A DNA stretch of 64,000 nt from contig NC_088322.1 of the NCBI RefSeq assembly GCF_910592395.1, forward strand, positions 2,354,001-2,418,000, in the 5' to 3' direction. The stretch is from Lineus longissimus (Eukaryota; Nemertea; Pilidiophora; Heteronemertea; Lineidae). Position 1 is the first letter of the stretch, and every line of letters starts with the position of its first letter. The notes under the pieces are model-generated. The model had not been told where the DNA came from. It ran no database searches and worked only from the letters and a program-made list of their open reading frames with translations. The position numbers and the translations under genes are program-made. This document shows, piece after piece, positions 23,476 to 40,048 of the stretch.

Positions 23476-24732
23476 ATGGCAACAGGATATTTATTAAATA
23501 CCGAAAGGGCACATAAGATTCCACTTGGTTTGAAAGCTGAGAGGCAGCATCATATCATTACTCATAACCCCTCATCTGCTAGCCCCAAAGAAACACTGTA
23601 TGTTAGAATACCGGCATTGCGAGAGAATACATTCTTTGTACCTAAATCTCTTTATCTGTCTGCTGATGTAACCATTTCTGGTGATTCTAAAAATAGTGTT
23701 GTAAACAATCTTGGTAGAAACCTAATCTCAAAGATGGTGGTTAAGTGGGGAACAGAGCAGATATTTGACCTTGACGAATACAGTCATTATTCTACATTTA
23801 AATATATGTGGCTAACTGGAGAAGAAAGAAATGATAGAGTTTTTCAGGGTATTCAATCAGAAAATCTTAGAGAATTAAGATCAGGAGTCGCTGAAGCTGA
23901 TGTCACTGGAGAAACAGCTAATGAAAAGACATTAAAGAAAGTGTTTGACAAGAAGTACAAAATACCGTTAGATTTTGAATTATTCCACCATCATGCTCCA
24001 TTTTACAAGTTTCCAATTCAAGAAGATGTGATTATTGAAATCACATTAGCACCAAAGGAAGAGATCATAGTTACCGCAACCACAGCAAGTATGGGCTACA
24101 AACTAGAGAATATTTGTTTTGAATATGACACCGTAACCAACAAAATGATTGCTAGTCAATTGAGTAACAAGTACAATTCTGGATTCTCAATATTTTATGA
24201 TTGGGTAGACCATTTTAAGACAGTCAATGTTACTGCTAATGAAACACTAATTAATGAGAACATCAACTTTCCAAGAATGTCTATTAAAGGATTATTATTA
24301 CTATTTGTGTCTGACTATGTAGATGGAGCTAGAGATTCAGAGAAGTTTGAAAACCCTAACATAAGTAAAGTGCAGATCACAATAGAGGGTGTTGCCAATC
24401 AGGTGTTCCCAGAAGGAATAAGAATGATGGATCAATGGGAGGAGATCAAGAAACATTTTATGTCTGAAGATTTGAAGAAAACTTATGACTGTTACATGAC
24501 AATGGAGAAATACTATGGTGATTCTAATCACTATGGTTTATGGTTTGATTTGAGAACCAACGAAGACAACCGCTTACACGGATCAGGAAAGAAGCTTCAG
24601 AACACAAAAGATGGTATTCAATTATCTGTTACAAAGAAATCTGGAAAGGGACCATACAAAATGCACATATTCGTGGTTTCTGACGCCCAGGTTAACATTC
24701 AGAATTCTCAGATTGCTTCACTCCAACACTAA
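23476..24732 (+). CDS. Candidate major capsid protein of copy B
   Basis: 418 residues. The N-terminus (GYLLNTERAHKIPL, then ETLYVRIPALRENTFFVPKSLYLSADVTI) and the alternating beta pattern throughout fit a double jelly-roll capsid protein of the kind found in a second group of Polintons. The family differs from the F54H12.2-like capsid at 6059. The gene is first from the left end and is followed by small virion-type genes. The start codon is preceded by TAAATAGAAA, a motif shared with the polymerase and the gene at 34307. Capsid assignment rests on layout, length and position; no catalytic motif is expected. Confidence 0.6.
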   Translation: MATGYLLNTERAHKIPLGLKAERQHHIITHNPSSASPKETLYVRIPALRENTFFVPKSLYLSADVTISGDSKNSVVNNLGRNLISKMVVKWGTEQIFDLDEYSHYSTFKYMWLTGEERNDRVFQGIQSENLRELRSGVAEADVTGETANEKTLKKVFDKKYKIPLDFELFHHHAPFYKFPIQEDVIIEITLAPKEEIIVTATTASMGYKLENICFEYDTVTNKMIASQLSNKYNSGFSIFYDWVDHFKTVNVTANETLINENINFPRMSIKGLLLLFVSDYVDGARDSEKFENPNISKVQITIEGVANQVFPEGIRMMDQWEEIKKHFMSEDLKKTYDCYMTMEKYYGDSNHYGLWFDLRTNEDNRLHGSGKKLQNTKDGIQLSVTKKSGKGPYKMHIFVVSDAQVNIQNSQIASLQH

Positions 24733-24742
24733 GGTGCTGCAA

Positions 24743-24810
24743 GAACAAAGTTCACTACAACATTAGTTGCAGAACAAAGTTCGTACAACATTAGTTGCAG
24801 AACAAAGTTC
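24743..24810. repeat. Three single hairpins GAAC-AAA-GTTC in tandem
   Basis: GAACAAAGTTC occurs at 24743-24753, 24772-24782 and 24800-24810 within a 28-29 base tandem repeat (TGCAGAACAAAGTTCGTACA). Each is the 4-3-4 half unit of the double hairpins found elsewhere in copy B. It lies in the gap after the capsid gene. Confidence 0.8.
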
Positions 24811-24877
24811 GTACAACACTAAATTAAATACTAAATACTAGATAATGAGTTTTACTAGTGATTTTCTAAGTAATTAA

Positions 24878-25114
24878 ATGGATACACCAGGAAAGAAAGA
24901 TATCATAAATACACTGTATCAAAGTTTACTGTTGGCATCAACAACAATTGGTTACTCTATGCTACTGAAAAGGTTCTTGAGAGTCAATATTGGTCCCCCA
25001 AGTCAGGCCGACCTAGAGGAAATTCTTAAACTGGGCAGAACTGTAGCTATTAGCAATGGAACATTAGAGTACCTTTACGATCAGGGGATCATACCCAGAA
25101 ATATTATGAAGTAA
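24878..25114 (+). CDS. Small Polinton protein with one hydrophobic helix
   Basis: 78 residues. KKDIINTLYQSLLLASTTIGYSMLLKRFLR near the start is a likely membrane helix preceded and followed by basic residues. The rest is a short soluble tail. I recognise this kind of small protein next to capsid genes in cnidarian and other invertebrate Polintons, where its role is unknown. The start codon is embedded in AATTAAATGG, the start motif common in this element. A virion membrane or entry role would be speculation. Confidence 0.5.
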   Translation: MDTPGKKDIINTLYQSLLLASTTIGYSMLLKRFLRVNIGPPSQADLEEILKLGRTVAISNGTLEYLYDQGIIPRNIMK

Positions 25115-25171
25115 GAATAATTTACTTATTTGATAAAAGGTAAATTTGAAAACGAAAATTTACTTAACTAA

Positions 25172-25948
25172 ATGGTTACTGTAATGAACATAGATTCAAG
25201 TGACTATCCAGATCAGAGTTCAAGTGATTTAACAGTTAATCTCAAGACTGAAATTCAGGATGCATGTAGCATCACTTTAACTTTTGCAGTAATACCTTGT
25301 ACATTCTACAACATAAGTGCAGCCAGGGAGAATAACCGAATCAAAGTTAAGGGGTTTGATGTGGCAGAGATTACGCTACCAGATGGTCTCTATGACCTAC
25401 AGAGCTTTTCAAAAGTATTTGCGGATAAGTTGAAAGAAAATAGTATGAGTAGAGGTGCTGTCAGATTTGACCTTGAAGAACCAACAGGTAAGGCCATCTT
25501 ACACTTCCTAAAGAGAAAAAATGAGGCGCATTATCAGATCTATTTTCTTGGTAAAAGTAATGAATTATTTGGCATGAAATCAGAATGGCCTTACCCTTTA
25601 GACAATAAAAGTAAGGATGATGTTGTAAGCGAGAAACCCATCAATTTTAGACCAATTAACCATTTTGTTTTTCACTGTGACATAATCGAATCTACTAGTG
25701 TATTAAGTAATGGTGAAGCATCTGATGTGCTAACCACAAGACCAATAAAGGAAGCTAATTTTGGAGATTTAATAGCATACACATTTGAGAAACCAATAGC
25801 AATTCCTTGTAAACCAAGATTCAATAAGCTGAATATTCGCTTAACTGATGAAAAAGGTGACATCATCGATCTTAATGGTCATAATGTACAGTACCAATTG
25901 GTATTAACTCGAGCTATGCTCTCAGGACGAAGTCCGACACATCATTAA
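25172..25948 (+). CDS. Penton-like minor capsid protein with double-hairpin tail
   Basis: 258 residues. The first 110 residues (MNIDSSDYPDQ, SITLTFAVIPCTFYNIS) and the C-terminal NKLNIRLTDEKGDIIDLNGHN resemble the single jelly-roll minor capsid (penton) proteins of Polintons. The related protein at 34307 shares the ITDENGKLVNFRG motif. The last 14 codons (LTRAMLSGRSPTHH) are read from double-hairpin unit 25911-25935, so the insertion has replaced or extended the natural C-terminus. Start motif TAAATGG. The vertex role is inferred from the family. Confidence 0.5.
   Translation: MVTVMNIDSSDYPDQSSSDLTVNLKTEIQDACSITLTFAVIPCTFYNISAARENNRIKVKGFDVAEITLPDGLYDLQSFSKVFADKLKENSMSRGAVRFDLEEPTGKAILHFLKRKNEAHYQIYFLGKSNELFGMKSEWPYPLDNKSKDDVVSEKPINFRPINHFVFHCDIIESTSVLSNGEASDVLTTRPIKEANFGDLIAYTFEKPIAIPCKPRFNKLNIRLTDEKGDIIDLNGHNVQYQLVLTRAMLSGRSPTHH
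25911..25935 (+). repeat. Double-hairpin unit 1 (forward)
   Basis: GAGC-TAT-GCTC, spacer TCA, GGAC-GAA-GTCC. In frame at the C-terminus of the penton-like gene, read RAMLSGRSP. Confidence 0.9.
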
Positions 25949-25981
25949 ATTCACTGGAATTAACATTTTCACTGGAATTAA

Positions 25982-26440
25982 ATGGCTGGCATTGGTATGT
26001 TATTTGGATCTGCAATTATCAATGGATTAGCATTCACTGGATCCGGTTACCTTTTCAAGTCACTAGACAAAAACGGTTATGAAGATGAAGTGAAAAGACA
26101 TGATTTGGCTCAGGAGCAATTACAGAAGGCCTCCACAGAATGGGAGGAGCATAGAAAGAGTACTATTGACTTTGTTAATCTTGAATTAAAGAGAGAAAGA
26201 GACGCTTCTATTGATTTTAACAATACTGATTCAGCACTTACTGTTTACAATCATTTACATCCAGAAAGAACTATTGTACTACCTCAGCGACCACAATTAA
26301 GTGATTACTACCAACCTAGTGATGAAATGAAGAAATACGAGTACCTATGGATTATCCTAGGACTTAGTGGTTTAGGGTTAATAATTTATTATTTTACTAG
26401 GGTTAGAAAGACTAAGACCACTGATCGGACACAGTCCTGA
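25982..26440 (+). CDS. Conserved Polinton membrane protein
   Basis: 152 residues. A hydrophobic, glycine-rich N-terminus (GIGMLFGSAIINGLAFTGSGYLF) is followed by a charged helical middle (KRHDLAQEQLQKASTEWEEHRKSTIDFVNLEL) and a clear transmembrane segment near residues 120-140 (YLWIILGLSGLGLIIYYF) with a basic tail. The RHDLAxEQLQ segment is familiar from other Polintons. Function unknown, with a virion membrane or assembly role possible. The stop codon falls inside a double-hairpin unit, so the insertion may have set the present C-terminus. Start motif TTAAATGG. Confidence 0.5.
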   Translation: MAGIGMLFGSAIINGLAFTGSGYLFKSLDKNGYEDEVKRHDLAQEQLQKASTEWEEHRKSTIDFVNLELKRERDASIDFNNTDSALTVYNHLHPERTIVLPQRPQLSDYYQPSDEMKKYEYLWIILGLSGLGLIIYYFTRVRKTKTTDRTQS

Positions 26441-26451
26441 GAGCATAGCTC
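26427..26451 (-). repeat. Double-hairpin unit 2 (reverse)
   Basis: GGAC-ACA-GTCC, TGA, GAGC-ATA-GCTC. It overlaps the stop codon (26438-26440) of the membrane protein gene. Confidence 0.9.
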
Positions 26452-26465
26452 GATCAGAAGCAGGA

Positions 26466-27086
26466 CTAAGATTTTTGATGGGAAAGAGTAAATCCAAATG
26501 GATGTTGTAGTCTAATGATCAGTTTTGATCCTTTTTTCATCTTAAGTTCTTCTATGTAGTACTGTCTTTTCTCCTTAGGAATAACACTGTTTTCTTCTAA
26601 GGCATCTTTCATGGCTGATTCATCCTTATTAAAGAACAGGACTAAAATTCTTATGTTCTCTCTGTAGTCCTTGACAACTGAATTGTACTTCTGAACTAGT
26701 AACCAAACAGTGAGATTGTAGTGCCTGCCGGAAAAGGCAAGATTACATAACTCGGACACCTTCTTTTTTGTGTCTCTCAAATTAGCACAGTCATCAATGA
26801 GGAATAATGTGTTAGAACCAGCAAAGGTCAGAGTAGCAAACTGAAGCACAAGGTCCAAATTACTGGCCACAGCTTCGGGATTAACTATGTAGACGTTCTT
26901 GTCTTGGTAAATCCATTTCCTTTCATATGTCTTATTGTTGAAATATGTTGGACAGAAAATGACTATGTTCTGGAACTTGTGCCGATACTCCTTTTCTAAG
27001 AGGTCAAGGGCAAAATATGTCTTACCACAATTGGTAACACCAGAAATTAACATATTGTGTGGCTCGTAAATAAATACTTCACTCAT
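26466..27086 (-). CDS. Packaging ATPase of copy B (FtsK/HerA type)
   Basis: 206 residues. The P-loop is GVTNCGKT at residues 16-23. The Walker B strand is TLFLIDDCA near residue 95, followed by the LAFSGRHYNLTVWLLVQKYN segment typical of A32-like viral packaging ATPases. It is expected to pump the element's DNA into the capsid. It is shorter than the element 1 enzyme but complete in its motifs. Its start codon lies four bases from that of the integrase on the other strand. The two starts form the palindrome CATTTAAATG, so the two genes must share a divergent promoter. Confidence 0.85.
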   Translation of the reverse strand: MSEVFIYEPHNMLISGVTNCGKTYFALDLLEKEYRHKFQNIVIFCPTYFNNKTYERKWIYQDKNVYIVNPEAVASNLDLVLQFATLTFAGSNTLFLIDDCANLRDTKKKVSELCNLAFSGRHYNLTVWLLVQKYNSVVKDYRENIRILVLFFNKDESAMKDALEENSVIPKEKRQYYIEELKMKKGSKLIIRLQHPFGFTLSHQKS

Positions 27087-27095
27087 TTAAATGGA
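27082..27095. promoter_or_regulatory. Divergent start palindrome CATTTAAATG
   Basis: CATTTAAATG at 27084-27093 contains both start codons: the ATPase on the reverse strand and the integrase on the forward strand. Each is read as TTTAAATG. With only four bases between the ATGs, transcription start sites must lie inside the opposite gene or at the start codons themselves. Confidence 0.6.
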
Positions 27096-28212
27096 TGTAA
27101 AGGATGACACACAGCAGTATCTAAGGGATTTGTACTACAACCCCGAGAGTCCCGTGGCTTACAGTTCTTTGAGTAAAATCTGGAAACAGGTCAAGGAAGA
27201 TATGACTTCGTCACGAGAGCAGAGCTCAGGAAAACTTATTAAACAAAAAGAAGTGAAAGAATTTCTAGAAACACTACCAACTCACCAACTACACAAACCG
27301 GCCATTAAGAAATTCACCTTCAGGAAGACAATGGTATCGTACATCGATCAACAGTGGCAAGCTGATCTGGTTGACATGCAGAAATTCGAGAGTAAGAATA
27401 AGGGTTTCAGATTCATTTTAACAGTCATAGATCTATTGAGTCGTTTTTCTTGGGCTCTAGCAGTTAAGAGTAAGAGGGGAGAAGAAATCAGAGATGCATT
27501 CAAATTGATTTTCAGAGAAGCAAAACCAGAAAAGATCCAGTTTGATGACGGTACAGAATTTTACAACAAACACTTCAAGGAACTCTTAACAGAAAATGAC
27601 ATAGAATGGTTCTCCACAAAATCTGATAAGAAGGCAGCAGTAGTAGAGAGATTCAATAGAACCCTTAAAGAAAAAATGTGGCGTTATTTCACCGCTAAGG
27701 AGACTGACAAGTGGATTGACGTTCTGGATGACCTGGTCAGCGGCTACAATAACACATTTCACTTATCAATAGGTATGAAACCTGTAGACGCCAGAAAGAT
27801 GGAAAACGAAGGAACAGTGTGGTACAATCTTTACGGTCTTCACCTCAAAGAGACATTTGGTAATCCAAAGTACAAAGTAGGTGACAGTGTAAGAATTTCA
27901 AAGTACAAGTCCATTTTCGGTAAAGGTTACATGCCCAACTACACTGAGGAGGTGTTCCAAATCAAACAGATCATCTTTACTCACCCTATCGTCTACAAGC
28001 TTGAGGATTACCACAAAGAAGAAATTCAAGGATATTTCTATGAAGAGGAATTGAGCTATGTTCCTAATCCTGACCAGCTAGAGTACAAGATCGAGAAAAT
28101 CCTCAGGTACAAGACCAGTAAAGGCAAGAAATACGGATTAGTGAAGTGGAAGGGTTACAGTGATAAGTTCAATGAATGGTTACCAGTTTCTGAAATAAAG
28201 TCTCTAAAGTGA
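27091..28212 (+). CDS. Polinton integrase (rve core, chromodomain)
   Basis: 373 residues. The retroviral-type catalytic triad is visible: Asp92 (WQADLVDM), Asp152 (QFDDGTEF) and Glu186 (AAVVERFNRTL), with 33 residues between the last two. An SH3-like DNA-binding region (YKVGDSVRISKYKSIF) follows near residue 265, and a C-terminal chromodomain (YKIEKILRYKTSKGKKYGLVKWKGYSDKFNEW) from about residue 330. The protein would insert the element and make the 6-bp duplication; the chromodomain may bias target choice. A double-hairpin unit lies in frame at residues 38-46 (MTSSREQSS), outside the catalytic core. Length and motifs are those of intact Polinton integrases. Confidence 0.9.
   Translation: MDVKDDTQQYLRDLYYNPESPVAYSSLSKIWKQVKEDMTSSREQSSGKLIKQKEVKEFLETLPTHQLHKPAIKKFTFRKTMVSYIDQQWQADLVDMQKFESKNKGFRFILTVIDLLSRFSWALAVKSKRGEEIRDAFKLIFREAKPEKIQFDDGTEFYNKHFKELLTENDIEWFSTKSDKKAAVVERFNRTLKEKMWRYFTAKETDKWIDVLDDLVSGYNNTFHLSIGMKPVDARKMENEGTVWYNLYGLHLKETFGNPKYKVGDSVRISKYKSIFGKGYMPNYTEEVFQIKQIIFTHPIVYKLEDYHKEEIQGYFYEEELSYVPNPDQLEYKIEKILRYKTSKGKKYGLVKWKGYSDKFNEWLPVSEIKSLK
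27203..27227 (-). repeat. Double-hairpin unit 3 (reverse)
   Basis: TGAC-TTC-GTCA, CGA, GAGC-AGA-GCTC. The first stem is a paired variant of GGAC/GTCC. In frame in the integrase N-terminus. Confidence 0.85.
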
Positions 28213-28234
28213 CTTAAGTCACAAGAACAAGTTC
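28210..28234 (-). repeat. Double-hairpin unit 4 (reverse, altered loops)
   Basis: TGAC-TTAA-GTCA, CAA, GAAC-AA-GTTC. Both stems pair but the loops are 4 and 2 bases instead of 3, so total length is kept. It starts at the integrase stop codon. Confidence 0.65.
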
Positions 28235-28281
28235 GAAAAACGTAATTTAAAAAAAAAATGTCCTACTAAATAAAGAAAGAA

Positions 28282-29376
28282 ATGGAGGGAGCAATATTTG
28301 ATAATCAGAATAATATGATGAATCAGAATAATATGATGAATCATGACAATATGATGAATCAAAATATTCAGAAGTTTTTGTATAATTTGCATCAAAATAA
28401 TATGTTAAATCAAAATATGATAAATCAGATTATGTTAAATCAAAATATGATAAATCAGTTTATCTTAAATCAGAATAATATGATGAATCAAAACATGGAA
28501 AATCAACCTACAATTTATTGTGTTAAGTGCTGTGAAAAGAAACCTGAAATTAATTTTGAAAAGAACAGGCGTAATAAACTACTTGATTACTGTAAAGAAT
28601 GTGGTTCAAGTAAAATCAAGGGATGTAATAAATGTTATGAAATTAAATTACTAAGTGATGGTGAATTTGGTAAAGACGGAAATAGAGGTAACTGCAGATC
28701 ATGTTTTAATTCATATTACAAAAAGGATTACCTTGACCAAAATGGTAATAGAGACAGACACAAAATTAGAGTTGGTCTAAACCGCATTTCTAAGGGAGAG
28801 TGTACTCGAGCTCTGCTCTCAGGACGAAGTCCGACCGGTAATTCCTCATTTAATCTAGGATGTACAGACAGTTTCTTCCATCAGTGGTTAGAGTACCAGA
28901 GGAGTCTATCTCCAATAGGACAAAGTCCCGAGAACAGAGTTCGAATAGAAGAAGAAGAGTTGGATCATGTCTTACCAATCAAGGAATTCAAAGATAAGCC
29001 TGAACTGTGCTTTGCTTGGTTTAACATGAGACCAATGGAAAAGACAGAAAACAGACAGAAGAGTGCTACAATAGACTACACACTATTTAAGGATCAATTC
29101 GATAGGTCAATGGATTTCATGGTAAAGATGAGAAGTGAAAACTGGTTTGTTTTTCGAGACCAGAATGTAATACCAGATTGGAAAATAGTGATATCACAGC
29201 ATTTCGGGGATTATCTTCGTGATGAAAATATGATTCTGCTTGATAGATTATCGAATTTAAATAATAACATGAGAATGAACCAGAACATTAACATATGTAG
29301 TGAGACAGAAATCATAAACGAGATGATTAAGTTGAATAATAGACTTGAAAGAAATTTACTCTTTGCAGTGAATTGA
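28282..29376 (+). CDS. HNH-type nuclease with two C4 zinc modules
   Basis: 364 residues. Residues 1-75 are repeats of NQNNMMNQ. Two zinc-binding modules follow: Cys80/83 with Cys104/107, and Cys115/118 with Cys138/141. Residues 226-262 (EEELDHVLPIKEF to CFAWFNMRPMEKTENRQKS) match the HNH pattern, with His229, Asn248 and Asn257 as the likely metal site. Such proteins occur in large DNA viruses and mobile elements and cut DNA, sometimes as homing enzymes. Two double-hairpin units sit in frame at about residues 175-185 and 212-221, between the zinc and HNH modules. Whether this nuclease moves or recognises the hairpins is an open idea. The N-terminal Asn repeats are DNA-level repeats of AATCAGAATAATATGATG. 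Confidence 0.65.
   Translation: MEGAIFDNQNNMMNQNNMMNHDNMMNQNIQKFLYNLHQNNMLNQNMINQIMLNQNMINQFILNQNNMMNQNMENQPTIYCVKCCEKKPEINFEKNRRNKLLDYCKECGSSKIKGCNKCYEIKLLSDGEFGKDGNRGNCRSCFNSYYKKDYLDQNGNRDRHKIRVGLNRISKGECTRALLSGRSPTGNSSFNLGCTDSFFHQWLEYQRSLSPIGQSPENRVRIEEEELDHVLPIKEFKDKPELCFAWFNMRPMEKTENRQKSATIDYTLFKDQFDRSMDFMVKMRSENWFVFRDQNVIPDWKIVISQHFGDYLRDENMILLDRLSNLNNNMRMNQNINICSETEIINEMIKLNNRLERNLLFAVN
28300..28500 (+). repeat. Coding microsatellite-like repeats AATCARAATAATATGATG
   Basis: Repeated AATCAGAATAATATGATGAA-type units encode the Asn/Met/Gln-rich start of the HNH protein. Length variation between copies is expected. Confidence 0.8.
28808..28832 (+). repeat. Double-hairpin unit 5 (forward)
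   Basis: GAGC-TCT-GCTC, TCA, GGAC-GAA-GTCC. In frame in the HNH gene, read RALLSGRSP. Confidence 0.9.
28918..28942 (-). repeat. Double-hairpin unit 6 (reverse)
   Basis: GGAC-AAA-GTCC, CGA, GAAC-AGA-GTTC. The second stem is a paired variant. In frame in the HNH gene, read GQSPENRVR. Confidence 0.88.
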
Positions 29377-29395
29377 TTTTATTCTACTTAATTAA

Positions 29396-29647
29396 ATGAA
29401 TAGAACTTGGGGTTACACAAAACGACCACGTAATTGGAAAGAAAGATTAGAACGATTTCATAGAGAATTAGAGGCAGAAGTAGAGTCAAAGTTGGAGCCT
29501 GGTCCCGAAAAACCTTTAAAACCTGCTGGGCCTGCTGGGTCAGAAAAACCTTTAAAATTTAATGTACTTCAAAAACCTGTAGTGTCTGCAAGATCAACAC
29601 TAAACACTAGAAATGACAGAACAACTGATTCTAGTTATTCCCACTAA
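29396..29647 (+). CDS. Small basic Polinton protein, unknown
   Basis: 83 residues. A basic, tryptophan-containing start (MNRTWGYTKRPRNWKERLERFHRELEAE) is followed by proline-rich repeats (EKPLKPAGPAGSEKPLK). I do not recognise a family. The start motif AATTAAATG, matched by the neighbouring genes, and the tight spacing (next ATG only five bases after its stop) support a real gene. A nucleic acid binding role is possible from charge alone. Confidence 0.45.
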   Translation: MNRTWGYTKRPRNWKERLERFHRELEAEVESKLEPGPEKPLKPAGPAGSEKPLKFNVLQKPVVSARSTLNTRNDRTTDSSYSH

Positions 29648-29651
29648 TTAA

Positions 29652-30503
29652 ATGGATGGAGACAACAAGGTTTATCCAGATTTAAGTAATTTAAACTCTG
29701 AAAGTCAATTAAACTATGAAAGGTCTGAAAAGCATACAGAAAGTAACCCTCAGTCTTTCAGGCTTAATTCAATTAGTGATGTCAAGAGGTTTTTTGAGGG
29801 CGAGATTGAATGCAGGAGAAAGATATCTTTAAAATACAAAAAAGCTTTTGATGTGATTACTGGCATTAGCTATTTCCTTAATTTTGCCAGCGTTGCAGCT
29901 GGCTCTGTTGGTGTTTCCGCTTTAGCTGGTGTCATCACGGCACCGATAGGCTTAGCTTTGGGTGGCGTAACAATAAGTAGTGCCATTATTTCATCAGCCT
30001 TAGGCTGGGAGAAAAAGAATATTCTTAGGAAAATTGAAAAGCATGAGAAGATATCACAACTGGCCATTTCCAAACTTAACACAATCAATGATTTGGTCAG
30101 TAAAGCCTTAACCGATTCTCACATATCTACAGAGGAATTCGGTTTAAAACTCAAGGAGAAGGAGAAGTACCTTTCCATGAAAAATGCCATTAGGAAAAAA
30201 CAAAGGGAGACCAATTCCAATGTCGATGTAGAGTCCCTTAAAAAGACTTTTTTAGAAGAAGGAAAGACTAGCACAGACAGAGATGCTAGAAAAACTAAAA
30301 GTTCAGTAAATCATACAGGACTCGAGCTATGCTCTCAGGACAAAGTCCGACTAGGACAAGGTCCCGAGAACAAAGTTCGACTAAATAGTCCTAATCCTAA
30401 TGTGGTTTATCACTATCACTATCACTATTATCATGACTTTGGTGTTAGGGATGAATTTCACCAAGTAGCACTACCATCAGCACCACCCTATTCATTAGTT
30501 TAA
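29652..30503 (+). CDS. Polinton two-helix membrane protein with PSAP tail
   Basis: 283 residues. Residues about 70-115 form one or two hydrophobic helices (ITGISYFLNFASVAAGSVGVSALAGVITAPIGLALGGVTISSAII), followed by a charged helical region (KKNILRKIEKHEKISQLAISKLNTINDLVSKAL). This combination recurs in Polintons of other invertebrates with unknown role. Near the C-terminus lie two abutting double-hairpin units (LELCSQDKVRLGQGPENKVRLN), then a HYHYHYYHDF histidine-tyrosine run and LPSAPPY. PSAP is the core of a Tsg101-binding late domain used by budding viruses; here it may be chance. Start motif AATTAAATGG. Confidence 0.5.
   Translation: MDGDNKVYPDLSNLNSESQLNYERSEKHTESNPQSFRLNSISDVKRFFEGEIECRRKISLKYKKAFDVITGISYFLNFASVAAGSVGVSALAGVITAPIGLALGGVTISSAIISSALGWEKKNILRKIEKHEKISQLAISKLNTINDLVSKALTDSHISTEEFGLKLKEKEKYLSMKNAIRKKQRETNSNVDVESLKKTFLEEGKTSTDRDARKTKSSVNHTGLELCSQDKVRLGQGPENKVRLNSPNPNVVYHYHYHYYHDFGVRDEFHQVALPSAPPYSLV
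30324..30348 (+). repeat. Double-hairpin unit 7 (forward)
   Basis: GAGC-TAT-GCTC, TCA, GGAC-AAA-GTCC. In frame, read ELCSQDKVR. Confidence 0.9.
30354..30378 (-). repeat. Double-hairpin unit 8 (reverse)
   Basis: GGAC-AAG-GTCC, CGA, GAAC-AAA-GTTC. It lies five bases after unit 7 in the opposite orientation, making a head-to-head pair. Confidence 0.88.
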
Positions 30504-30518
30504 GAATGATTTTGCAAC

Positions 30519-34250: not shown

Positions 34251-34306
34251 TCTATTTATTAGATTAAAATTTATTAAATTCAATAAATCTCTTGAATTAA
34301 ATAGAA

Positions 34307-35338
34307 ATGGACTTCATAATCAATGAACAAGAATGTAATGAAGCCAAATTTGAGTACTACTTAACAGACCAATTAGACATAAAATCCATTACATTGAAAT
34401 CGATAACCTTTTACAATTCATGGTGGACAGGTGATTTTCTACCAGAGGGAGTAAGGATTTTCTCATTTCTAGTCGAAATAACCAGAATTACAACAAATGA
34501 GCCCTTAGATAAACAATTATGGTGTATGGATGAATTTAGGACATTATTTGCTCCTGGACTTGAAACAGATACACTTGAAAAGGAAGTCATGAAAATTTGC
34601 GAACGGCATTTGGAAAATGAATCTACCACAACTAAAGACACCATTACTCAATACACATTTCCATACTCTCGACATTTTAGTTTAAGTGAGTTTTGTGAGG
34701 TATGGCAAAAATACATAAAAGAAATTGGAATTAGCCACGTTAAGGTCAACTGTGATAACAATAATTACATAACCCTTGAACTTACAGAGGATAAAGAGTA
34801 CCCTCTAAAAGTAGACAAGTTAGATAAAAATGAAAAAATCAAGATTGAGAGAAACACAGAAGGTTTTCAAATAAGCAAAACCATAAGAGAGGTGATAGAA
34901 AAACAGCTCACAGTGGTGAATGAGTGGTTTGGCTTTAAGCAAACTAAATTCACCAAGAAAGGAAAATACTACTCCACAAGACCACTCAACTTTTACAGGA
35001 AATATCTATTCCTGCAAGCTAATTTGGTTGACAAAGCTAAGACCCTCTACAACAATAAACCATCTAACATTTTCTGCATCATACCTGTAGAAGATGGTGA
35101 CCAAATAAAAATGCAGCGATACGAACCGAATTGTAAGAAAACAATAAATAAGTGTACTAATCACATAAAATTCGAAATCACTGATGAGAATGGTAAGCTA
35201 GTTAATTTCAGAGGAACAGAGGTTTCTTTAGAGTTAAGAATAAAGTTAAACTCTCAGGACAAAGTCCGAATAGAGTTAAACTCTTGTGGTGAAGACAAGC
35301 ACCTCGGACTCGAGCTATGCTCTCAAGACGAAGTCTGA
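34307..35338 (+). CDS. Putative second penton/fibre-like jelly-roll protein
   Basis: 343 residues. No motif of known enzymatic function. The C-terminal IKFEITDENGKLVNFRGTEVSLELRIKL parallels the LNIRLTDEKGDIIDLNGHN segment of the penton-like protein at 25172, and the start (YYLTDQLDIKSITLKSITFYNSWW) resembles the opening strands of that family. I infer a second minor capsid protein of jelly-roll type. The last 40 codons run through two or three double-hairpin units, and the stop lies at the end of the last one. Start motif TTAAATAGAAATGG. Confidence 0.45.
   Translation: MDFIINEQECNEAKFEYYLTDQLDIKSITLKSITFYNSWWTGDFLPEGVRIFSFLVEITRITTNEPLDKQLWCMDEFRTLFAPGLETDTLEKEVMKICERHLENESTTTKDTITQYTFPYSRHFSLSEFCEVWQKYIKEIGISHVKVNCDNNNYITLELTEDKEYPLKVDKLDKNEKIKIERNTEGFQISKTIREVIEKQLTVVNEWFGFKQTKFTKKGKYYSTRPLNFYRKYLFLQANLVDKAKTLYNNKPSNIFCIIPVEDGDQIKMQRYEPNCKKTINKCTNHIKFEITDENGKLVNFRGTEVSLELRIKLNSQDKVRIELNSCGEDKHLGLELCSQDEV
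35243..35267 (+). repeat. Double-hairpin unit 12 (forward, degenerate)
   Basis: AAGT-TAA-ACTC (one mismatch), TCA, GGAC-AAA-GTCC. A paired GAGT-TAA-ACTC half unit follows at 35273-35283 without a paired partner. Confidence 0.6.
35312..35336 (+). repeat. Double-hairpin unit 13 (forward), AGAC stem
   Basis: GAGC-TAT-GCTC, TCA, AGAC-GAA-GTCT. The second stem changed at both sides (G-C to A-T). It abuts the stop codon of the gene at 34307. Confidence 0.9.
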
Positions 35339-35351
35339 CCACCTGATGAGA

Positions 35352-35828
35352 TCATTCCATTAAAGGAATAGTACATTTCTTCTCTTTAACTACAGGTTTA
35401 ACAAGAGGGCTAATTGATCCCTTCATGACTGCTTCATTCGGACTTTGTCCTGAGAGCATAGCTTGATTCAAGCCTGATCGCTGCTCTTTACTTACTTTTT
35501 TAGGAAGTTTCTTAAACATAATGAATGCTGCTAAAATAACGGCACCTAAACCTAGTACATAGACATAGGTATTACTACTAGATTCACGCAGTGATACATC
35601 AGTATTTTGAGATTGTGGTTCTTCTTCCTCTACTTCTTCTTCCTCCTTTTCCACAACTCTGTTGTTTGGTGAGGAGTACTGTACTTTAAATGTCGTCTTA
35701 TCCTTTTTTATCCTCTTAAATTCCTGAGATCTTCTACCCAGTTCTCTAGACCATGCTAATTGTTTCTCTGATCGAGGTTTCTTAGACACTGAAACTTTAG
35801 TAGTATCAGTTACAGTTTCAAGTTCCAT
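35352..35828 (-). CDS. Polinton single-pass membrane protein
   Basis: 158 residues. A basic N-terminal SEKQLAWSRELGRRSQEFKRIKK motif is followed by a glutamate-rich stretch, a transmembrane segment near residues 87-106 (YVYVLGLGAVILAAFIMF) and a lysine-rich tail. The first motif recurs in Polinton proteins of other invertebrates and may bind nucleic acid or capsid. Double-hairpin unit 14 lies in frame in the tail (NQAMLSGQSP). Start motif ATAAATGG. Confidence 0.5.
   Translation of the reverse strand: MELETVTDTTKVSVSKKPRSEKQLAWSRELGRRSQEFKRIKKDKTTFKVQYSSPNNRVVEKEEEEVEEEEPQSQNTDVSLRESSSNTYVYVLGLGAVILAAFIMFKKLPKKVSKEQRSGLNQAMLSGQSPNEAVMKGSISPLVKPVVKEKKCTIPLME
35440..35464 (-). repeat. Double-hairpin unit 14 (reverse)
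   Basis: GGAC-TTT-GTCC, TGA, GAGC-ATA-GCTT (last pair is G-T). In frame, read AMLSGQSP on the coding strand. Confidence 0.85.
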
Positions 35829-35850
35829 TTATCTTGGCCGAATTTAATTC

Positions 35851-35875
35851 GAACTATGTTCTCATAACCAGGTTA
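35851..35875 (+). repeat. Double-hairpin unit 15 (forward), TAAC stem
   Basis: GAAC-TAT-GTTC, TCA, TAAC-CAG-GTTA. Both stems are changed and fully paired. It fills nearly all of the gap between the stop of the 35878 gene and the start of the 35828 gene. Confidence 0.82.
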
Positions 35876-35877
35876 AT

Positions 35878-36771
35878 TTAGTCTTCTTTATCATCACTAC
35901 CTGTAATATCTGTACTTTCATGTATGGTTTTATCAAATTCAGAGACAGTCATATTTGGTGTATTCATATTTGATGCAGTCATACTCGATGTATTCATAGA
36001 TGATTCCTCATGACAATGACCTAAAGTAATAAGTGTTGTTGAGGCAAGTGCCGTTAATGGACCCATCTTGATACTAAACCATCCAAGCCATTTATCCAAC
36101 TCGTTAGTTATCAAATAATCATTTCTAAGATCATGGTAAAGATCATCTTCATCATCTATTGGTAATAACCACCTTGATAATTTAGTGTAAGCTTTAAGTA
36201 CTGTCTTACCCAAAGAATCATTAAGTCTAGCAGCCATCTTTGTTTCATACATTCTATGGTGTTTTAAGATTTCTTTTTCAGTCATATTATCTAAGTCATT
36301 AAAAGTTATTTGTTTATTAAGGAAATCCTTGCTTTTACCAGTTGCAACTAGAATCTCTAAGTCTTGTTTGGCTTTAAGGCCACTATCAGTCAAATAGTTC
36401 AAATTTTGTTGATTGCTAGTTGAGCCTAGTTGATTGCTAGTCGGACTTTGTCCTGAGAGCGTAGCTCGAGTTGAGCCTAGTTGCCAACTAGAATTGACTA
36501 TTCCCTGACTGGGATTAACTATTCCCTGACTAGGAGTAACTAAATTTGAACTATTCAACTGCTTGTTTGAAACTTGTTGATTTGTAGAGCAGTTCTGTTG
36601 AAAGTTAGTTCTGTTTTGTTGGTAACTACCAGTGTTCTGTGGGTTAGAAGCCCCAACTCGAGCTAAGCTCTCAGGACTGTGTCTGACTGGGTTTGGAATG
36701 ATAACACCAATCTGTTTCATCTGTTGTTCAATCACTGCAGATGTCTGACTGTTCATTTGCTGATTATTCAT
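35878..36771 (-). CDS. Conserved Polinton protein with Q/N-rich start
   Basis: 297 residues. Residues 1-130 are rich in Q, N and S and contain a duplicated TPSQGIVNPSQGIV segment and two double-hairpin units (HSPESLARV and TRATLSGQSP). The core at about residues 150-250 (NMTEKEILKHHRMYETKMAARLNDSLGKTV to WFSIKMGPLTALASTTLITLGH) is a pattern I know from Polinton proteins of unknown role. The C-terminus is acidic with an MNT/MTA repeat. Hairpins cluster in the disordered part and spare the conserved core. Start motif TTTAAATG. Confidence 0.5.
   Translation of the reverse strand: MNNQQMNSQTSAVIEQQMKQIGVIIPNPVRHSPESLARVGASNPQNTGSYQQNRTNFQQNCSTNQQVSNKQLNSSNLVTPSQGIVNPSQGIVNSSWQLGSTRATLSGQSPTSNQLGSTSNQQNLNYLTDSGLKAKQDLEILVATGKSKDFLNKQITFNDLDNMTEKEILKHHRMYETKMAARLNDSLGKTVLKAYTKLSRWLLPIDDEDDLYHDLRNDYLITNELDKWLGWFSIKMGPLTALASTTLITLGHCHEESSMNTSSMTASNMNTPNMTVSEFDKTIHESTDITGSDDKED
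36443..36467 (-). repeat. Double-hairpin unit 16 (reverse)
   Basis: GGAC-TTT-GTCC, TGA, GAGC-GTA-GCTC. In frame, read TRATLSGQSP on the coding strand. Confidence 0.9.
36660..36684 (+). repeat. Double-hairpin unit 17 (forward)
   Basis: GAGC-TAA-GCTC, TCA, GGAC-TGT-GTCT. The last stem has one G-T pair, a possible intermediate between GGAC/GTCC and AGAC/GTCT. In frame, read HSPESLARV on the coding strand. Confidence 0.85.
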
Positions 36772-36822
36772 TTAAAATTATGGAAAAATGACTGTTAAGT
36801 GCAAAATGCTGTTTTCACAACT

Positions 36823-37956
36823 TTATTGCATCTTAACACTAGCTCGAGCTATGCTCTCAGGACGAAGTCCGGCTGGTGTAAACTTAATACTACTGATGCA
36901 GTTATTGTCTCTACCTGCACTTGCACTCAGTAAAACGTCAAACTGCTTGTCAATATCCTGGTCATATACCTTCTCAAATTTGTAATTTTGGAAGAAAATA
37001 CTTTGAGTGAAATCATACCATAATCTCTCCAAATCATTAATTCGCTCCTTGTTGGTTAAAAAAGGTGTAAATATTACATAATCAATTTTCAGCGTTTTAA
37101 AGGCTTGGTGTAAAAATACCTTGTAGTTAATGGTGACCTTGATACCACAGTAATGCAGAAATCTTAGGAAGGCAAAGTAAACTAGTCTAAGGTCAGTGAT
37201 ATTCTCATCGGTTAATTGCGGTTTACCAATTGCCCTGTTAATAAATTCCAATGCAAGAAACCAGTCATATTCCCCACAGTGAAATTTAAAAAGCATGGCT
37301 TCACCATGTAACCCTTGGTTACATAATTTAGAGGGGAAAATAGCAATACCCATGTTTAGGGCTGACTGAAGAGTACTTTCATATCTCTGCTTACTGAGGC
37401 ATTTTCTGGAACTTGAAAAGCAACCCTGTAAATACCATTCCACAAAGTCCTTTAAATACTTAACTGCCGATTCGGACAGCCGCCTCCATCCAAGTTTCCT
37501 TAGAATACTGTCAAAGTAACGTGTCTTGTTGTCAATATTGATCTCAAGAGTTTTAAAATCATCGTCGTAAGTAGGCGAATTGCAATTGGTGCAGAATTGA
37601 TACCTGACAGTTTTAGCTGCGTACCTTGCTGAATTCAAGTTTTTTCGGTACTCACATAGTGTCCACCTTTTACAATTTCTACATAATTCCGCTTTGGCGA
37701 TGGTACTGGTGTCATACTCTTTCATTTTTGGCATACCTTTGGTATTAACAGCAGAGCTGTGCACAAGAAAGTTATTGGCAACTTTATGTGTCTCAGTCAG
37801 ACTTCGTCTTGAGAGCATAGCTCGAGTAGGCTTATCATCTTCTCCACTGTCATCTTTTTTATTGAATGTAGAATTTCCATCCATAACCCTAGGACGAAGG
37901 AATCCAGTAAGATTTTCATTGCTACATTTACTAAAATAGTCTTTTAATGAAATCAT
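36823..37956 (-). CDS. Unknown Polinton protein with CxxC zinc motifs
   Basis: 377 residues from the ATG at 37956; the frame opens three codons earlier on GTG. Near residue 95 lie CRNCKRWTLC and, about 25 residues on, FCTNC, likely one zinc site. The rest is a mostly helical domain rich in F, Y, L and K with no known motif. Its size and conserved-looking globular core suggest an enzyme or replication factor, but I do not recognise it. Double-hairpin unit 19 is in frame near the N-terminus (TRAMLSRRS) and unit 18 forms the C-terminus (GLRPESIAR). Confidence 0.45.
   Translation of the reverse strand: MISLKDYFSKCSNENLTGFLRPRVMDGNSTFNKKDDSGEDDKPTRAMLSRRSLTETHKVANNFLVHSSAVNTKGMPKMKEYDTSTIAKAELCRNCKRWTLCEYRKNLNSARYAAKTVRYQFCTNCNSPTYDDDFKTLEINIDNKTRYFDSILRKLGWRRLSESAVKYLKDFVEWYLQGCFSSSRKCLSKQRYESTLQSALNMGIAIFPSKLCNQGLHGEAMLFKFHCGEYDWFLALEFINRAIGKPQLTDENITDLRLVYFAFLRFLHYCGIKVTINYKVFLHQAFKTLKIDYVIFTPFLTNKERINDLERLWYDFTQSIFFQNYKFEKVYDQDIDKQFDVLLSASAGRDNNCISSIKFTPAGLRPESIARASVKMQ
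36846..36870 (+). repeat. Double-hairpin unit 18 (forward)
   Basis: GAGC-TAT-GCTC, TCA, GGAC-GAA-GTCC. In frame at the C-terminus of the zinc-motif protein, read on its coding strand as GLRPESIAR. Confidence 0.9.
37799..37823 (-). repeat. Double-hairpin unit 19 (reverse), AGAC stem
   Basis: AGAC-TTC-GTCT, TGA, GAGC-ATA-GCTC. The same paired stem change as unit 13. In frame in the zinc-motif protein. Confidence 0.9.
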
Positions 37957-38016
37957 CCTATTCACTTCTATTTACATAATAATTATTTTTTAAACATTGT
38001 TTTGATAGAAGGTCAC

Positions 38017-38238
38017 CTAAGACCTTTTATGTTTTTTTAAGGCTTTACGTGATTTTAAGGCTTTAACACCCTCTATTAAACCATAGATTATGGAGCTCAC
38101 AATAGCAATAACTGCTATGATCAGATGTTCAGCTAGAAAACCAACAGCTGCACCCCCAGATTTCAATAAAAATGAAACTAAAGACCCTATTATTCCAGGT
38201 AAAACTGCAGCTGATTTCTTGGCTAGTTCTTTAACCAT
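38017..38238 (-). CDS. Small hydrophobic Polinton protein
   Basis: 73 residues with two adjoining hydrophobic helices (AVLPGIIGSLVSFLLKSGGAAVGFLAEHLIIAVIAIVSSIIYGLIEG) and a lysine-rich tail. Its first 16 bases overlap the end of the coiled-coil gene upstream in another frame. In related invertebrate elements, similar hydrophobic segments seem to lie at the end of one longer protein with the coiled-coil part, so this may be the product of a frameshift or a recently split gene. A pore or membrane-anchoring role is possible. Confidence 0.45.
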   Translation of the reverse strand: MVKELAKKSAAVLPGIIGSLVSFLLKSGGAAVGFLAEHLIIAVIAIVSSIIYGLIEGVKALKSRKALKKHKRS

Positions 38239-39545
38239 TCAGCCAACTTCTTAAGACCTTCTTTTACTTTATCTGGTATTGATGGTTTTGGTCCAGGTTC
38301 TGGTGTAGGTCCTGGAGTTGGGTCTGGTCCTGGAGTTGGGTCTGGTCCTGGAGATGGTTTTACAGATTTAGTGGCACCACTTAAAGCACTACTGATACTA
38401 AGACCTAGAGTTGTAAGTGTCATTACAACAGCTGTTATTATGGCGCTAATAGTTACACCATACGTCTTAAAAAGTAACTTTATTCTGTCCTTCAGAGGAA
38501 TAGTTGAATCTGGTTTCTTTAGAACATCAACAATTAAACGTTTAATTCTTCTAGTTTGTGACTCCCTGTCATTGTCTAACCTCCATACCTTTGACTGTTC
38601 CTCATGCAATTTGTCATTTAGTTCATCTATTTGCTTTTTCAACTCTCCCTCTCTTATTATTAGATTTTCCTTTTCGTCTGAATGATCTTCTCCAGAGTTA
38701 ATTAAGTCATTTCTTAGAACTTCATTTTCTTCTCCTAGGATAGCATATTCTCTTTTTTTACTGTTAAGTTCTTCTTCTAGGCTTTCTTTTTGCATGTCCT
38801 TATCCATCTTTACTGCAGCTAGATCATCACCAGCCTGTTTTAACCCTCTAAGTTCTCTCAAGGCAGATTCAGTGAAACCCAGTGATTTAAGTTCATCATC
38901 ATTGGAATCAATTAATTTATCTATTGGTTTGTTTGAACTGTTTACCTCATTAATTAATATGTCTGTTTGAGTGGATGCAGATTTAGGTTCCCTTACTGGT
39001 GGGTCAGGTGCAATCATACCTTTTAAATGATTGACAAAATTAGTACCAAACTTATTCTTTAAAGTGTTTTCAGCAAAGAAGCTTCCTTCACCCTTAGTTA
39101 AAGGAATTATCTTTATGTCTTCTCTACCCTTATCACTCCAGTCAAATAAATTTTCGTTTCCTAGTTTATCTTTTATCAAATCAAATTCATACTGTGTTTT
39201 CGGCCAATAATAAAGTTTGTTACCATTGTAAAGAATGTGTGGTGCAAGATTACTCAATTTTTTCTTGTCATACTTCCAGTTTGATTCTCCCAATGCTTTA
39301 TCAAGTTTATCCTCTACTTCAGCGTAACTTAACTCCTTTTTCATCAATTCAGGGACAATACCTCTTACTCTTTCTGGAGTTGTAGTGAATGAAGTTTCAG
39401 TAGTAAGATTTGTATTACCTGTGTTGTATATTGTGCCGTCATCTTGAAAAGTTCTATTGGTTTCACCTGTATTAGGATCATCCACATTACGAATGCGATA
39501 ATTCTCTAACTCACCCATTTGGATATCTTCACCTCCTTCAGCCAT
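38223..39545 (-). CDS. Coiled-coil, Pro-rich Polinton protein
   Basis: 440 residues. A globular N-terminal part (HILYNGNKLYYWPKTQYEFDLIKDKLG) is followed by a long heptad coiled coil at about residues 225-330, a DRIKLLFKTYGVTISAIITAVVMTLTTLGLSISSAL membrane helix near residues 345-390, and a PGPDPTPGP repeat. The last 16 bases overlap the next small gene. This architecture is known from Polinton-like proteins of cnidarians; a fibre or tail-like virion role is conceivable but untested. The proline repeat is a DNA-level tandem repeat of 18 bases (CCTGGAGTTGGGTCTGGT on the forward strand). Confidence 0.5.
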   Translation of the reverse strand: MAEGGEDIQMGELENYRIRNVDDPNTGETNRTFQDDGTIYNTGNTNLTTETSFTTTPERVRGIVPELMKKELSYAEVEDKLDKALGESNWKYDKKKLSNLAPHILYNGNKLYYWPKTQYEFDLIKDKLGNENLFDWSDKGREDIKIIPLTKGEGSFFAENTLKNKFGTNFVNHLKGMIAPDPPVREPKSASTQTDILINEVNSSNKPIDKLIDSNDDELKSLGFTESALRELRGLKQAGDDLAAVKMDKDMQKESLEEELNSKKREYAILGEENEVLRNDLINSGEDHSDEKENLIIREGELKKQIDELNDKLHEEQSKVWRLDNDRESQTRRIKRLIVDVLKKPDSTIPLKDRIKLLFKTYGVTISAIITAVVMTLTTLGLSISSALSGATKSVKPSPGPDPTPGPDPTPGPTPEPGPKPSIPDKVKEGLKKLAEWLKN

Positions 39546-39555
39546 AATTACTTAT

Positions 39556-39936
39556 TTATCTAACCATAAAAACAATCAATGTACCAACAACTGAGTAAAG
39601 CATGAATTTAATTGTTTCATGAGTATCATCCACCTTCTCAACTTTGGTGTCAAGTTTAGTAGTAGTAGGAGTATTCTTTGAGGTTTCAGTTGTTTTTGGT
39701 GTATCAACATTACTCTTTGGTGTATGACTGGTCTCGAGCTCTGCTCTCAGGACGAAGTCCGTCATTGATGTACCAACGCTACTCTTAACTCTTATTTTCT
39801 TAGAACTATTTCCTTCCATCAGTGGTGGTGGTAAGGTCTTTTTGTGGTTAATGTCATTCTTACCAGGTTTAGCATTTTTTGGTGCTATTAAAATGTTATT
39901 ATTGTAGTTATCCAGCTTACCAATAACGAGTACCAT
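39556..39936 (-). CDS. Tail-anchored Polinton protein, start uncertain
   Basis: The frame is open from about 40039. The first in-frame ATG is at 39936, giving 126 residues; an upstream non-ATG start at 40002 would give 148. The C-terminal 17 residues (KFMLYSVVGTLIVFMVR) are a membrane helix. The middle is rich in T, K and S. Double-hairpin unit 20 lies in frame (VLRAELETS). No family is recognised. The open frame upstream of the ATG overlaps the end of the gene at 40049, so a frameshift link with that gene is possible. Confidence 0.4.
   Translation of the reverse strand: MVLVIGKLDNYNNNILIAPKNAKPGKNDINHKKTLPPPLMEGNSSKKIRVKSSVGTSMTDFVLRAELETSHTPKSNVDTPKTTETSKNTPTTTKLDTKVEKVDDTHETIKFMLYSVVGTLIVFMVR
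39736..39760 (+). repeat. Double-hairpin unit 20 (forward)
   Basis: GAGC-TCT-GCTC, TCA, GGAC-GAA-GTCC. In frame in the tail-anchored protein. Confidence 0.9.
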
Positions 39937-40048
39937 ATTTGATCCTATGACATACAATCCTGGTGCTATTACATAATCTAGTCTTGTGTGAGTGTCACTC
40001 ACTGCTTTTTGATATCTTTGAATTGAAGTGGGAATATCAGGATGTTGA

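What the first reader, a model, noticed from the sequence alone, without database searches (positions are those of the whole stretch)
24743..39760. Twenty dispersed 25-nt double hairpins inside one Polinton
Units of two mini-hairpins (4-bp stem, 3-nt loop) joined by a 3-nt spacer occur at 25911, 26427, 27203, 28210, 28808, 28918, 30324, 30354, 31742, 33437, 33484, 35243, 35312, 35440, 35851, 36443, 36660, 36846, 37799 and 39736. Both orientations are represented, in genes and between genes. Half units also occur (24743, 24772, 24800, 32980, 35273). None was noticed outside copy B. Double-hairpin elements are established in Allomyces mitochondrial DNA, and in-frame palindromic elements in Rickettsia. 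A comparable swarm in an animal virus-like element is, to my knowledge, undescribed. It could be a mobile micro-element, a packaging or recombination signal, or an RNA-level element.
Basis: partly seen in the sequence, partly recalled or inferred. Interest (0 to 1): 0.94.

Follow-up and report, generated by a model that had tools for sequence, protein, structure and literature searches.

The report
Tiny jumping hairpins inside a Polinton
A virus-like element in this animal genome is peppered with a 27-letter DNA piece that forms two tiny hairpins and has repeatedly jumped into new places, often inside genes without breaking them; it is an unusually small mobile DNA and, as far as checked, lives only inside this virus-like element.

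Summary
The units are real: 17 perfect 4-3-4/3/4-3-4 double hairpins in the Polinton against a shuffle mean of 0.5. They are one sequence family with 2,400-3,230 pattern hits in the 391-Mb genome and none in reversed-pattern controls. Of 100 listed hits, 87 lie within 15 kb of matched stretches of this Polinton lineage and 13 in two clusters confirmed as this lineage by five samples. Aligned copies show gain/loss of exactly 30 bp: a 27-nt element, C[25 nt]G/T, plus a 3-bp target duplication, usually A-N-T. Sites 36443 and 33437 show clean empty and filled alleles. Of pairs of copies under 1% diverged, 6 of 8 (first stretch) and 41 of 46 (second) differ in unit number, so movement is recent. 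The 27+3 length keeps reading frames: PolB varies in 10-residue steps, and units in one stop-prone frame carry stop-removing spacers. The mobilising enzyme is unknown. I favour a staggered-break process on replicating Polinton DNA, perhaps with its endonuclease-VII-like protein. Closest known behaviour: yeast mitochondrial GC clusters and Rickettsia palindromic elements.

The parts
22681..41188 (.). Host Polinton (copy B): terminal inverted repeats beginning AGAATAGTAGT, flanked by 6-bp duplication GCCGCG
25910..25936 (+). unit; flanking triplets ACT/ACA; of 30 loci 8 full, 18 internally shortened, 1 empty, 3 no data
26426..26452 (-). unit flanked by GATC...GATC (no 3-bp match in register); variable 19-bp half-unit repeat in other copies
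27202..27228 (-). unit in integrase ORF, filled in 29 of 29 covering copies; no clear duplication; a divergent Polinton has a hairpin array here
28209..28235 (-). irregular unit at integrase stop (treat it as +; arm order fits -); TSD AAA; 28 filled, 1 empty, 1 no data
28807..28833 (+). unit in endonuclease-VII-like ORF; 13 copies with one unit, 2 with two, 14 empty, 1 no data
28917..28943 (-). unit in endonuclease-VII-like ORF; TSD ATT (oriented); filled in 28 of 28 covering copies
30323..30349 (+). unit, TSD ACT; site carries 0-4 units in other copies
30353..30379 (-). unit next to the former in opposite orientation, TSD AGT (oriented)
31741..31767 (-). unit in PolB ORF, TSD ACT (oriented); filled in all 11 rows
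33436..33462 (-). unit in PolB ORF, TSD AAT (oriented); 4 of 11 rows filled, 7 of 11 empty
33483..33509 (+). unit in PolB ORF, part of a longer length difference between copies
35242..35268 (+). unit, TSD AAT; multi-unit variable site
35311..35337 (+). unit at end of ORF 34307-35338, supplies the stop codon
35439..35465 (-). unit, TSD AAT (oriented); 5 of 21 rows carry two units, 16 carry one
35850..35876 (+). intergenic unit; present in all 21 rows
36442..36468 (-). unit, TSD ACT (AGT on + strand); clean empty allele in L069 and L070
36659..36685 (+). unit, TSD ACT
36845..36871 (+). unit, TSD GCT; 30-bp arrays in L001 and L064
37798..37824 (-). unit, TSD ACT (oriented); other copies not examined
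39735..39761 (+). unit, TCT/TCA flanks; other copies not examined
28282..29376 (+). endonuclease-VII-like ORF, candidate (unproven) mobilising nuclease; itself holds two units
   Evidence: PHROG 1035, E 2.8e-6; 112 candidate places scored in the genome
30519..34283 (-). PolB ORF; ladder of 10-aa length differences among genomic copies
27091..28212 (+). Polinton integrase (rve + chromodomain)
26466..27086 (-). A32-like packaging ATPase

Best explanation
The units are copies of one 27-nt mobile element, C[GARC-NNN-GYTC]-TCN-[RGAC-NNN-GTCY]G/T, that inserts in either orientation into the DNA of one Polinton lineage and duplicates 3 bp of target, usually A-N-T. SHOWN: exact 30-bp gain/loss, 3-bp duplication with the empty target seen, repeated recent events, paired changes in hairpin stems, maintenance of reading frames. 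INFERRED: insertion happens on replicating, probably extrachromosomal, Polinton DNA, because no listed and checked copy lies in host DNA. Also inferred: a nuclease that recognises the extruded double hairpin or a three-way junction makes a 3-nt staggered break, and the hairpin piece is joined and filled in. The Polinton-encoded endonuclease-VII-like protein is the best candidate. Arrays would arise by insertion into a unit's own flanking A-N-T, and collapse by recombination between units. Within this statement, the mobile element with a 3-bp duplication is about 0.93 likely, and the specific break-and-join mechanism about 0.4.
For: Counts and controls. Clean empty/filled alleles: 36443 GCT-AGT-TGAGCC vs GCT-AGT-C[25]G-AGT-TGAGCC; 33437 G-ATT-TTG vs G-ATT-C[25]G-ATT-TTG; 28206, 28804, 30319-30380, 30524, 30805. 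TSD test in the window: 12 of 20 exact 3-bp matches (shuffled flanks: mean 2.74, max 9) and 18 of 20 matches at the middle base (shuffled mean 7.29; 0 of 20,000 shuffles reach it). In 198 distinct contexts the 3-bp match is 60% at offset 1/1 against 0-30% for 3-mers at eight other offsets. Pairs of loci under 1% diverged outside units: 6 of 8 (window 25900-30900) and 41 of 46 (35150-36100) differ by at least one unit-sized 30-bp step. Stem columns 3/9 and 15/25 covary; 89.6% Watson-Crick vs 81.9% shuffled mean, max 84.6%. Confinement: 87 of 100 listed hits within 15 kb of matched Polinton stretches, the other 13 in two clusters where 5 of 5 sampled loci are this Polinton; the 15 of 15 loci sampled are Polinton. 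PolB: 33 of 37 listed open frames lie on two ladders with a step of 10 aa, and 31 of 37 rows have no stop inside. In the antisense frame where the usual spacer gives TGA, 8 of 10 distinct units have another spacer and no stop; the other 2 are at a gene end.
Against: No enzyme has been tied to the element; the endonuclease-VII-like assignment rests on one PHROG match (E 2.8e-6), with no significant Pfam, NCBIfam or PDB match and a useless AlphaFold model (pLDDT 34). A 27-bp cargo is shorter than I know any two-ended transposase to handle (recalled). Predicted hairpin stability is modest (-4.1 to -4.5 kcal/mol as DNA, z -0.7 to -1.5; RNA z -0.6 and -0.1). 8 of 20 window units lack an exact 3-bp duplication (6 of these match at two bases, 27203 at one, 26427 at none). 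At 25906 and 28804 the third base differs between left flank and empty site in some copies, which also fits a 2-bp duplication with a fixed T. Stem covariation is not the strongest in the element: three loop/spacer column pairs score higher, and the shuffle does not keep relatedness. 24 of 118 distinct units in genes contain an in-frame stop, including all 4 in the antisense frame where the usual loop gives TAG; all lie within about 190 nt of the 3' end of the window's ORF. 2 of 8 and 5 of 46 close pairs show no difference. Some same-site differences may come from gene conversion.
Confidence: 0.8

Rival explanations
1. Copying by template switching: during strand-displacement replication by the protein-primed polymerase, the new strand slips from an A-N-T triplet to an A-N-T beside a unit elsewhere, copies the unit, and slips back. 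This looks like a target duplication and needs no nuclease.
For: No checked copy outside Polinton DNA. The Polinton carries AGTAGT/ACTACT five bases from its ends, and ACT, AGT and AAT are the commonest unit triplets; protein-primed polymerases slide back on terminal triplets (recalled). Two sites carry a left T not found in the empty target of some copies. Mixed and shuffled arrays.
Against: Duplications also occur at ATT, AAT, GCT and AAA with the middle base matching, and empty targets were seen for ATT, AGT and AAA, so the donor triplet would have to match each time. The insert length is very constant.
Confidence: 0.3
2. RNA-mediated spread: the unit RNA is reverse transcribed or ligated and inserted, as suggested for yeast mitochondrial GC clusters.
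For: Stem conservation, and a published suggestion for GC clusters (PMC4478555, passages seen).
Against: No tail at the ends; no reverse-transcriptase match among the Polinton ORFs scanned; within genes of the window about 10 units lie sense and 9 antisense (from, with 28210 re-oriented); no Rfam match; no excess RNA stability.
Confidence: 0.07
3. Functional signal (packaging, recombination, 3'-end formation) needed by the Polinton and placed at many positions.
For: Several units lie at or near gene ends (25911, 26427, 28210, 35312). Stems show paired changes. Five window units were filled in every covering row.
Against: Seven window units have empty alleles, numbers vary, units sit in the middle of PolB and early in the integrase, and both orientations occur.
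Confidence: 0.06
4. Ordinary minisatellite: the units are tandem-repeat slippage products.
For: 30-bp arrays at 36846 and a 19-bp array at 26427 in other copies.
Against: Most window units are single, at unrelated sites, in both orientations, with site-specific duplications and clean empty alleles.
Confidence: 0.03

Closest known systems
Yeast mitochondrial GC clusters (GC42 and others; PMC4478555, passages seen)
   Different: Mitochondrial, 42 nt for GC42, mostly intergenic. Here the host is a nuclear virus-like element, the element is 27 nt, and it sits inside genes and keeps frames.
Double-hairpin elements of Allomyces mtDNA and repetitive hairpin elements of sponge mtDNA (PMC2800124, passages seen; Allomyces paper seen only as a reference)
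   Same: Hairpin elements, dispersed, evidence for mobility (from titles and passages).
   Different: The sponge paper says flanking duplications are lacking in Allomyces; here they are present. No shared sequence was tested.
Rickettsia palindromic elements (PMC10969869 and PMC6649704, passages seen)
   Same: Palindromic mobile element inserted in frame in protein genes.
   Different: About 150 bp and bacterial; here 27 nt in an animal Polinton, with a 3-bp duplication directly shown.
Magnusiomyces mitochondrial 'byp' elements (mentioned in a PMC6649704 passage; details recalled)
   Same: Palindromic inserts in coding sequence.
   Different: Byps are skipped in translation; here most inserts leave the frame open, so no skipping is needed.
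REP/REPIN with RAYT transposase (recalled only)
   Same: Paired mini-hairpins spread by a nuclease of another gene.
   Different: No HUH transposase was seen here; RAYT elements are bacterial and extragenic.

Membership tests
Class II MITE (miniature inverted-repeat transposon) | Target-site duplication of fixed size | tested here: met
   3 bp, (exact in 12 of 20 window units)
Class II MITE (miniature inverted-repeat transposon) | Terminal inverted repeats shared with an autonomous parent transposon | tested here: not met
   Outer inverted repeat is only 1-2 bp (C..G, TC..GA); a parent transposon was not searched for beyond the Polinton genes
Rickettsia palindromic element | In-frame insertion in unrelated genes | tested here: met
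Rickettsia palindromic element | Length about 150 bp and RPE sequence | tested here: not met
   27 nt; exact pattern absent from the genome-contig collection; no RPE sequence compared
Yeast mitochondrial GC cluster | Located in mitochondrial DNA | tested here: not met
   on contigs of megabase size, in Polinton copies
Yeast mitochondrial GC cluster | Short palindromic unit with short flanking repeats, polymorphic presence, shuffling | tested here: met
Double-hairpin element (Allomyces type) | Two adjacent hairpins, dispersed and mobile | tested here: met
Double-hairpin element (Allomyces type) | Sequence relationship to the Allomyces elements | not tested
   no Allomyces sequence fetched
REPIN | Associated RAYT/HUH transposase | tested here: inconclusive
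   No such match among the Polinton ORFs scanned; several ORFs are unassigned
Polinton/Maverick (host element) | PolB, retroviral-type integrase, A32-like ATPase, terminal inverted repeats, 6-bp duplication | tested here: met
   AGTAGT motif and 6-bp duplication agree with PMC8097293 passages, though here the motif starts five bases inside

The most novel reading that the evidence does not exclude
A 27-nt micro-transposon that parasitises an endogenous animal virus-like element: it moves only on the Polinton's own replicating DNA, mobilised by a Polinton enzyme, so its presence in Polintons alone marks a recent extrachromosomal, virus-like replication phase.
Probability: 0.4. Interest if true: 0.93.

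Novelty: new variant of a known kind. Interest (0 to 1): 0.82.

Why it matters
Mobile hairpin micro-elements in mitochondria have been known for decades without a settled mechanism (PMC4478555 discusses it as open). Here there are thousands of copies in one nuclear lineage with clean empty sites, exact ends, a defined 3-bp duplication and a small set of candidate enzymes, so the mechanism becomes testable. If the restriction to Polintons holds for all copies, it would give indirect evidence that these elements replicate outside the chromosome. The units also show how a mobile DNA can live in essential genes by keeping frame and removing stops while keeping its hairpins.

Tried and rejected
Thermodynamic excess: the hairpins are not clearly more stable than shuffles, so stability is not used as an argument. 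Rfam at gathering score on 24600-41200: no match. Exact patterns in IMG/VR and in the prokaryote genome collection: none; integrase relatives in IMG/VR: none. AlphaFold model of ORF 28282-29376 from a single sequence: mean pLDDT 34, not used. PDB sequence searches for three ORFs: no match. Literature: some searches failed; searches ran. Searches combined Polinton/Maverick with palindromic, pufferfish and hairpin terms; no listed title or abstract start describes such units (listings only, 10 of 19, 7 of 7 and 10 of 10 papers shown). PMC8097293 holds neither 'hairpin' nor 'palindrom' in its main text. Most subscription papers are not in that library. Homologous proteins in other species could not be searched, so distribution beyond this genome is unknown. 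I first aligned loci without orienting them; that output was replaced and is not used. In one search one close pair (L021/L035, 43 'unit-indels') came from an end gap and one (L009/L010) was overcounted; one search repeats the count with end gaps cut and only unit-overlapping gaps, and replaces it.
Full report
What is there. All 20 units are at the stated coordinates. Sixteen have all eight stem pairs, three have seven, and one is irregular. The region 24601-41000 holds 17 perfect double hairpins where shuffles give a mean of 0.5 and a maximum of 3 in 200. They are a sequence family, not only a shape: 18 consensus hits in the 64-kb window, all inside that region, and 1 in the reversed window. 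The Polinton that carries them runs from 22681 to 41188, with terminal inverted repeats starting AGAATAGTAGT and a 6-bp duplication GCCGCG. It encodes an integrase with a chromodomain, an A32-like ATPase and PolB, and an ORF (28282-29376) with a match to PHROG endonuclease VII. A second Polinton in the window (integrase fragment at 1951, 39% identical over 204 residues to copy B) has no consensus unit.

Genome-wide. The window lies in a 391-Mb, 30-contig eukaryotic genome. I believe it is a pufferfish from size and contig lengths, but that is recalled and untested. The pattern with up to two mismatches has 2,400 hits and the broader exact pattern 3,230, with 0 in the reversed-pattern controls. 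Hits split evenly between chromosome strands, which by itself says nothing about orientation within Polintons; in the window 11 of 20 units are scored + and 9 - (10 and 10 if the irregular 28210 is read by arm order). Of the 100 hits listed, all on contigs C1-C4, 87 lie within 15 kb of a matched stretch of this Polinton lineage; such stretches with their margins cover 0.7% of the four contigs. The anchors include loci sampled at hits. The other 13 form two clusters, and the 5 loci sampled there are all this Polinton. The 15 sampled loci are also all Polinton. Isolated hits in the list, for example C1:11414120, were not checked. For the endonuclease-VII-like gene 112 candidate places were scored, giving 199 matches, many of them pieces of one gene, a lower bound; about 20 units each would give roughly the observed total.

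Mobility. Thirty loci of window 25900-30900, the window itself included, were aligned. At 28804, 15 loci are filled (two of them with two units), 14 empty and 1 has no data. At 28206, 28 are filled, 1 empty, 1 without data. At 25906, 8 are full, 18 carry a shortened unit, 1 is empty and 3 have no data. At 30805, 2 are filled, 11 empty, 17 without data. At 30319-30380, loci carry 0 to 4 units. Sites 27203 (29 of 29) and 28918 (28 of 28) are filled in all covering loci. In PolB, 33437 is filled in 4 of 11 rows and empty in 7, and 31742 is filled in all 11. At 36443 two loci have the clean empty sequence. At 35243-35440, 21 rows show different numbers, orientations and versions of units between nearly identical flanks, mostly in steps of 30 bp. 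Among pairs of loci under 1% diverged outside units, 6 of 8 in the first stretch and 41 of 46 in the second differ by at least one unit; 2 and 5 do not. So movement, or loss, is recent.

Ends and target. Flank statistics over 198 distinct contexts (many related by descent) give a 3-bp match of 60% in the register X-C[25]G/T-X and 0-30% at the eight other registers tried, the commonest X being ACT, AGT and AAT. In the window 12 of 20 units have an exact 3-bp match and 18 of 20 match at the middle base, whereas shuffled flanks average 2.74 and 7.29 and never reach these values in 20,000 trials. A mere preference for A-N-T cannot produce matching middle bases. Real empty alleles confirm duplication of AGT (36443), ATT (33437), AAA (28206) and ACT (30524), with one-base departures at 25906, 30319, 30509 and 30805.

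Selection. Among 85 distinct units the stem pairs 3/9 and 15/25 covary, but three loop or spacer column pairs covary more, probably reflecting subfamilies. Inside genes the 30-bp insert keeps the frame: 33 of 37 listed PolB open frames fall on two length ladders of 10 aa and 31 of 37 rows have no stop (my count from its table; 37 of 1,296 candidates were scored). In the antisense frame where the usual spacer would give TGA, 8 of 10 distinct units have a different spacer and no stop, and the two that stop do so at a gene end. In the antisense frame where the usual loop gives TAG, all 4 distinct units stop, at gene ends. Over all frames 24 of 118 distinct units carry a stop, all within about 190 nt of the 3' end of the window's ORF. 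So stops are tolerated near gene ends and absent further inside.

Age. A divergent Polinton (69-83% identical in pieces) has an array of the same mini-hairpins at the 27203 site and no consensus unit in the 3.1 kb before it. So the hairpin family may be older than the present burst, and 27203 may be the ancestral position; this is an inference from one locus.

Mechanism. The exact ends, fixed 27-nt length, both orientations, a 3-bp duplication and nesting in the element's own flanks argue for insertion at a staggered break rather than repeat slippage. Confinement to Polintons, as far as checked, argues that the reaction takes place on Polinton DNA while it replicates, not on chromosomes. The endonuclease-VII-like protein would suit a cruciform or junction, but the link is inference. 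Template switching by the protein-primed polymerase is the main rival. Which is right is open.

Known relatives in behaviour. Yeast mitochondrial GC clusters are flanked by AG or ACT, move, merge and shuffle (PMC4478555, passages). Rickettsia palindromic elements sit in frame in genes but are about 150 bp (PMC10969869, passages). Allomyces elements are said to lack flanking duplications (PMC2800124, passage). Vertebrate Mavericks are reported with (AGT)2 end motifs and 6-bp duplications (PMC8097293, passages); this one has AGTAGT five bases inside its end. None of the papers shown in the listings describes such units in Polintons by title or abstract start.

Noticed in passing
26422-26452 and loci L030, L034: A 19-bp half unit (one hairpin plus TGA) is tandemly expanded to different numbers in other copies, near the stop codon of ORF 25982-26440.
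   Followed up: partly
L062 460-566: A divergent Polinton carries an array of single mini-hairpins bounded by TGATC...GATCA at the position of the integrase unit.
   Followed up: partly
20717-21865 and 22691-23746: The left end of the Polinton is preceded by a second partial copy of the same end, about 1.97 kb away (83-100% identical in pieces).
   Followed up: no
28303-28480: An 18-bp repeat encoding Asn/Met/Gln-rich six-residue units varies in number between copies near the start of the endonuclease-VII-like ORF.
   Followed up: no
24743-24810: Three mini-hairpins GAACAAAGTTC in a tandem repeat of about 28 bp just after ORF 23476-24732.
   Followed up: no
1951-7931: A second, distant Polinton (integrase fragment 39% identical; weak, below-cut-off matches to A32 ATPase and adenovirus PX) without any unit.
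   Followed up: partly
16322-17470; 59466-63104; 19506-20756: Tc5-like DDE transposase ORF, a Gypsy-like pol (RT, RNase H, integrase), and a PNMA/gag-like ORF.
   Followed up: no
30519-34283: PolB contains a stretch resembling recombination endonuclease VII (PF02945, E 6.7e-4, below Pfam's cut-off).
   Followed up: no
49281-49838; 9026-9971: Tandem repeats of 186 bp and about 296 bp outside the Polinton.
   Followed up: no
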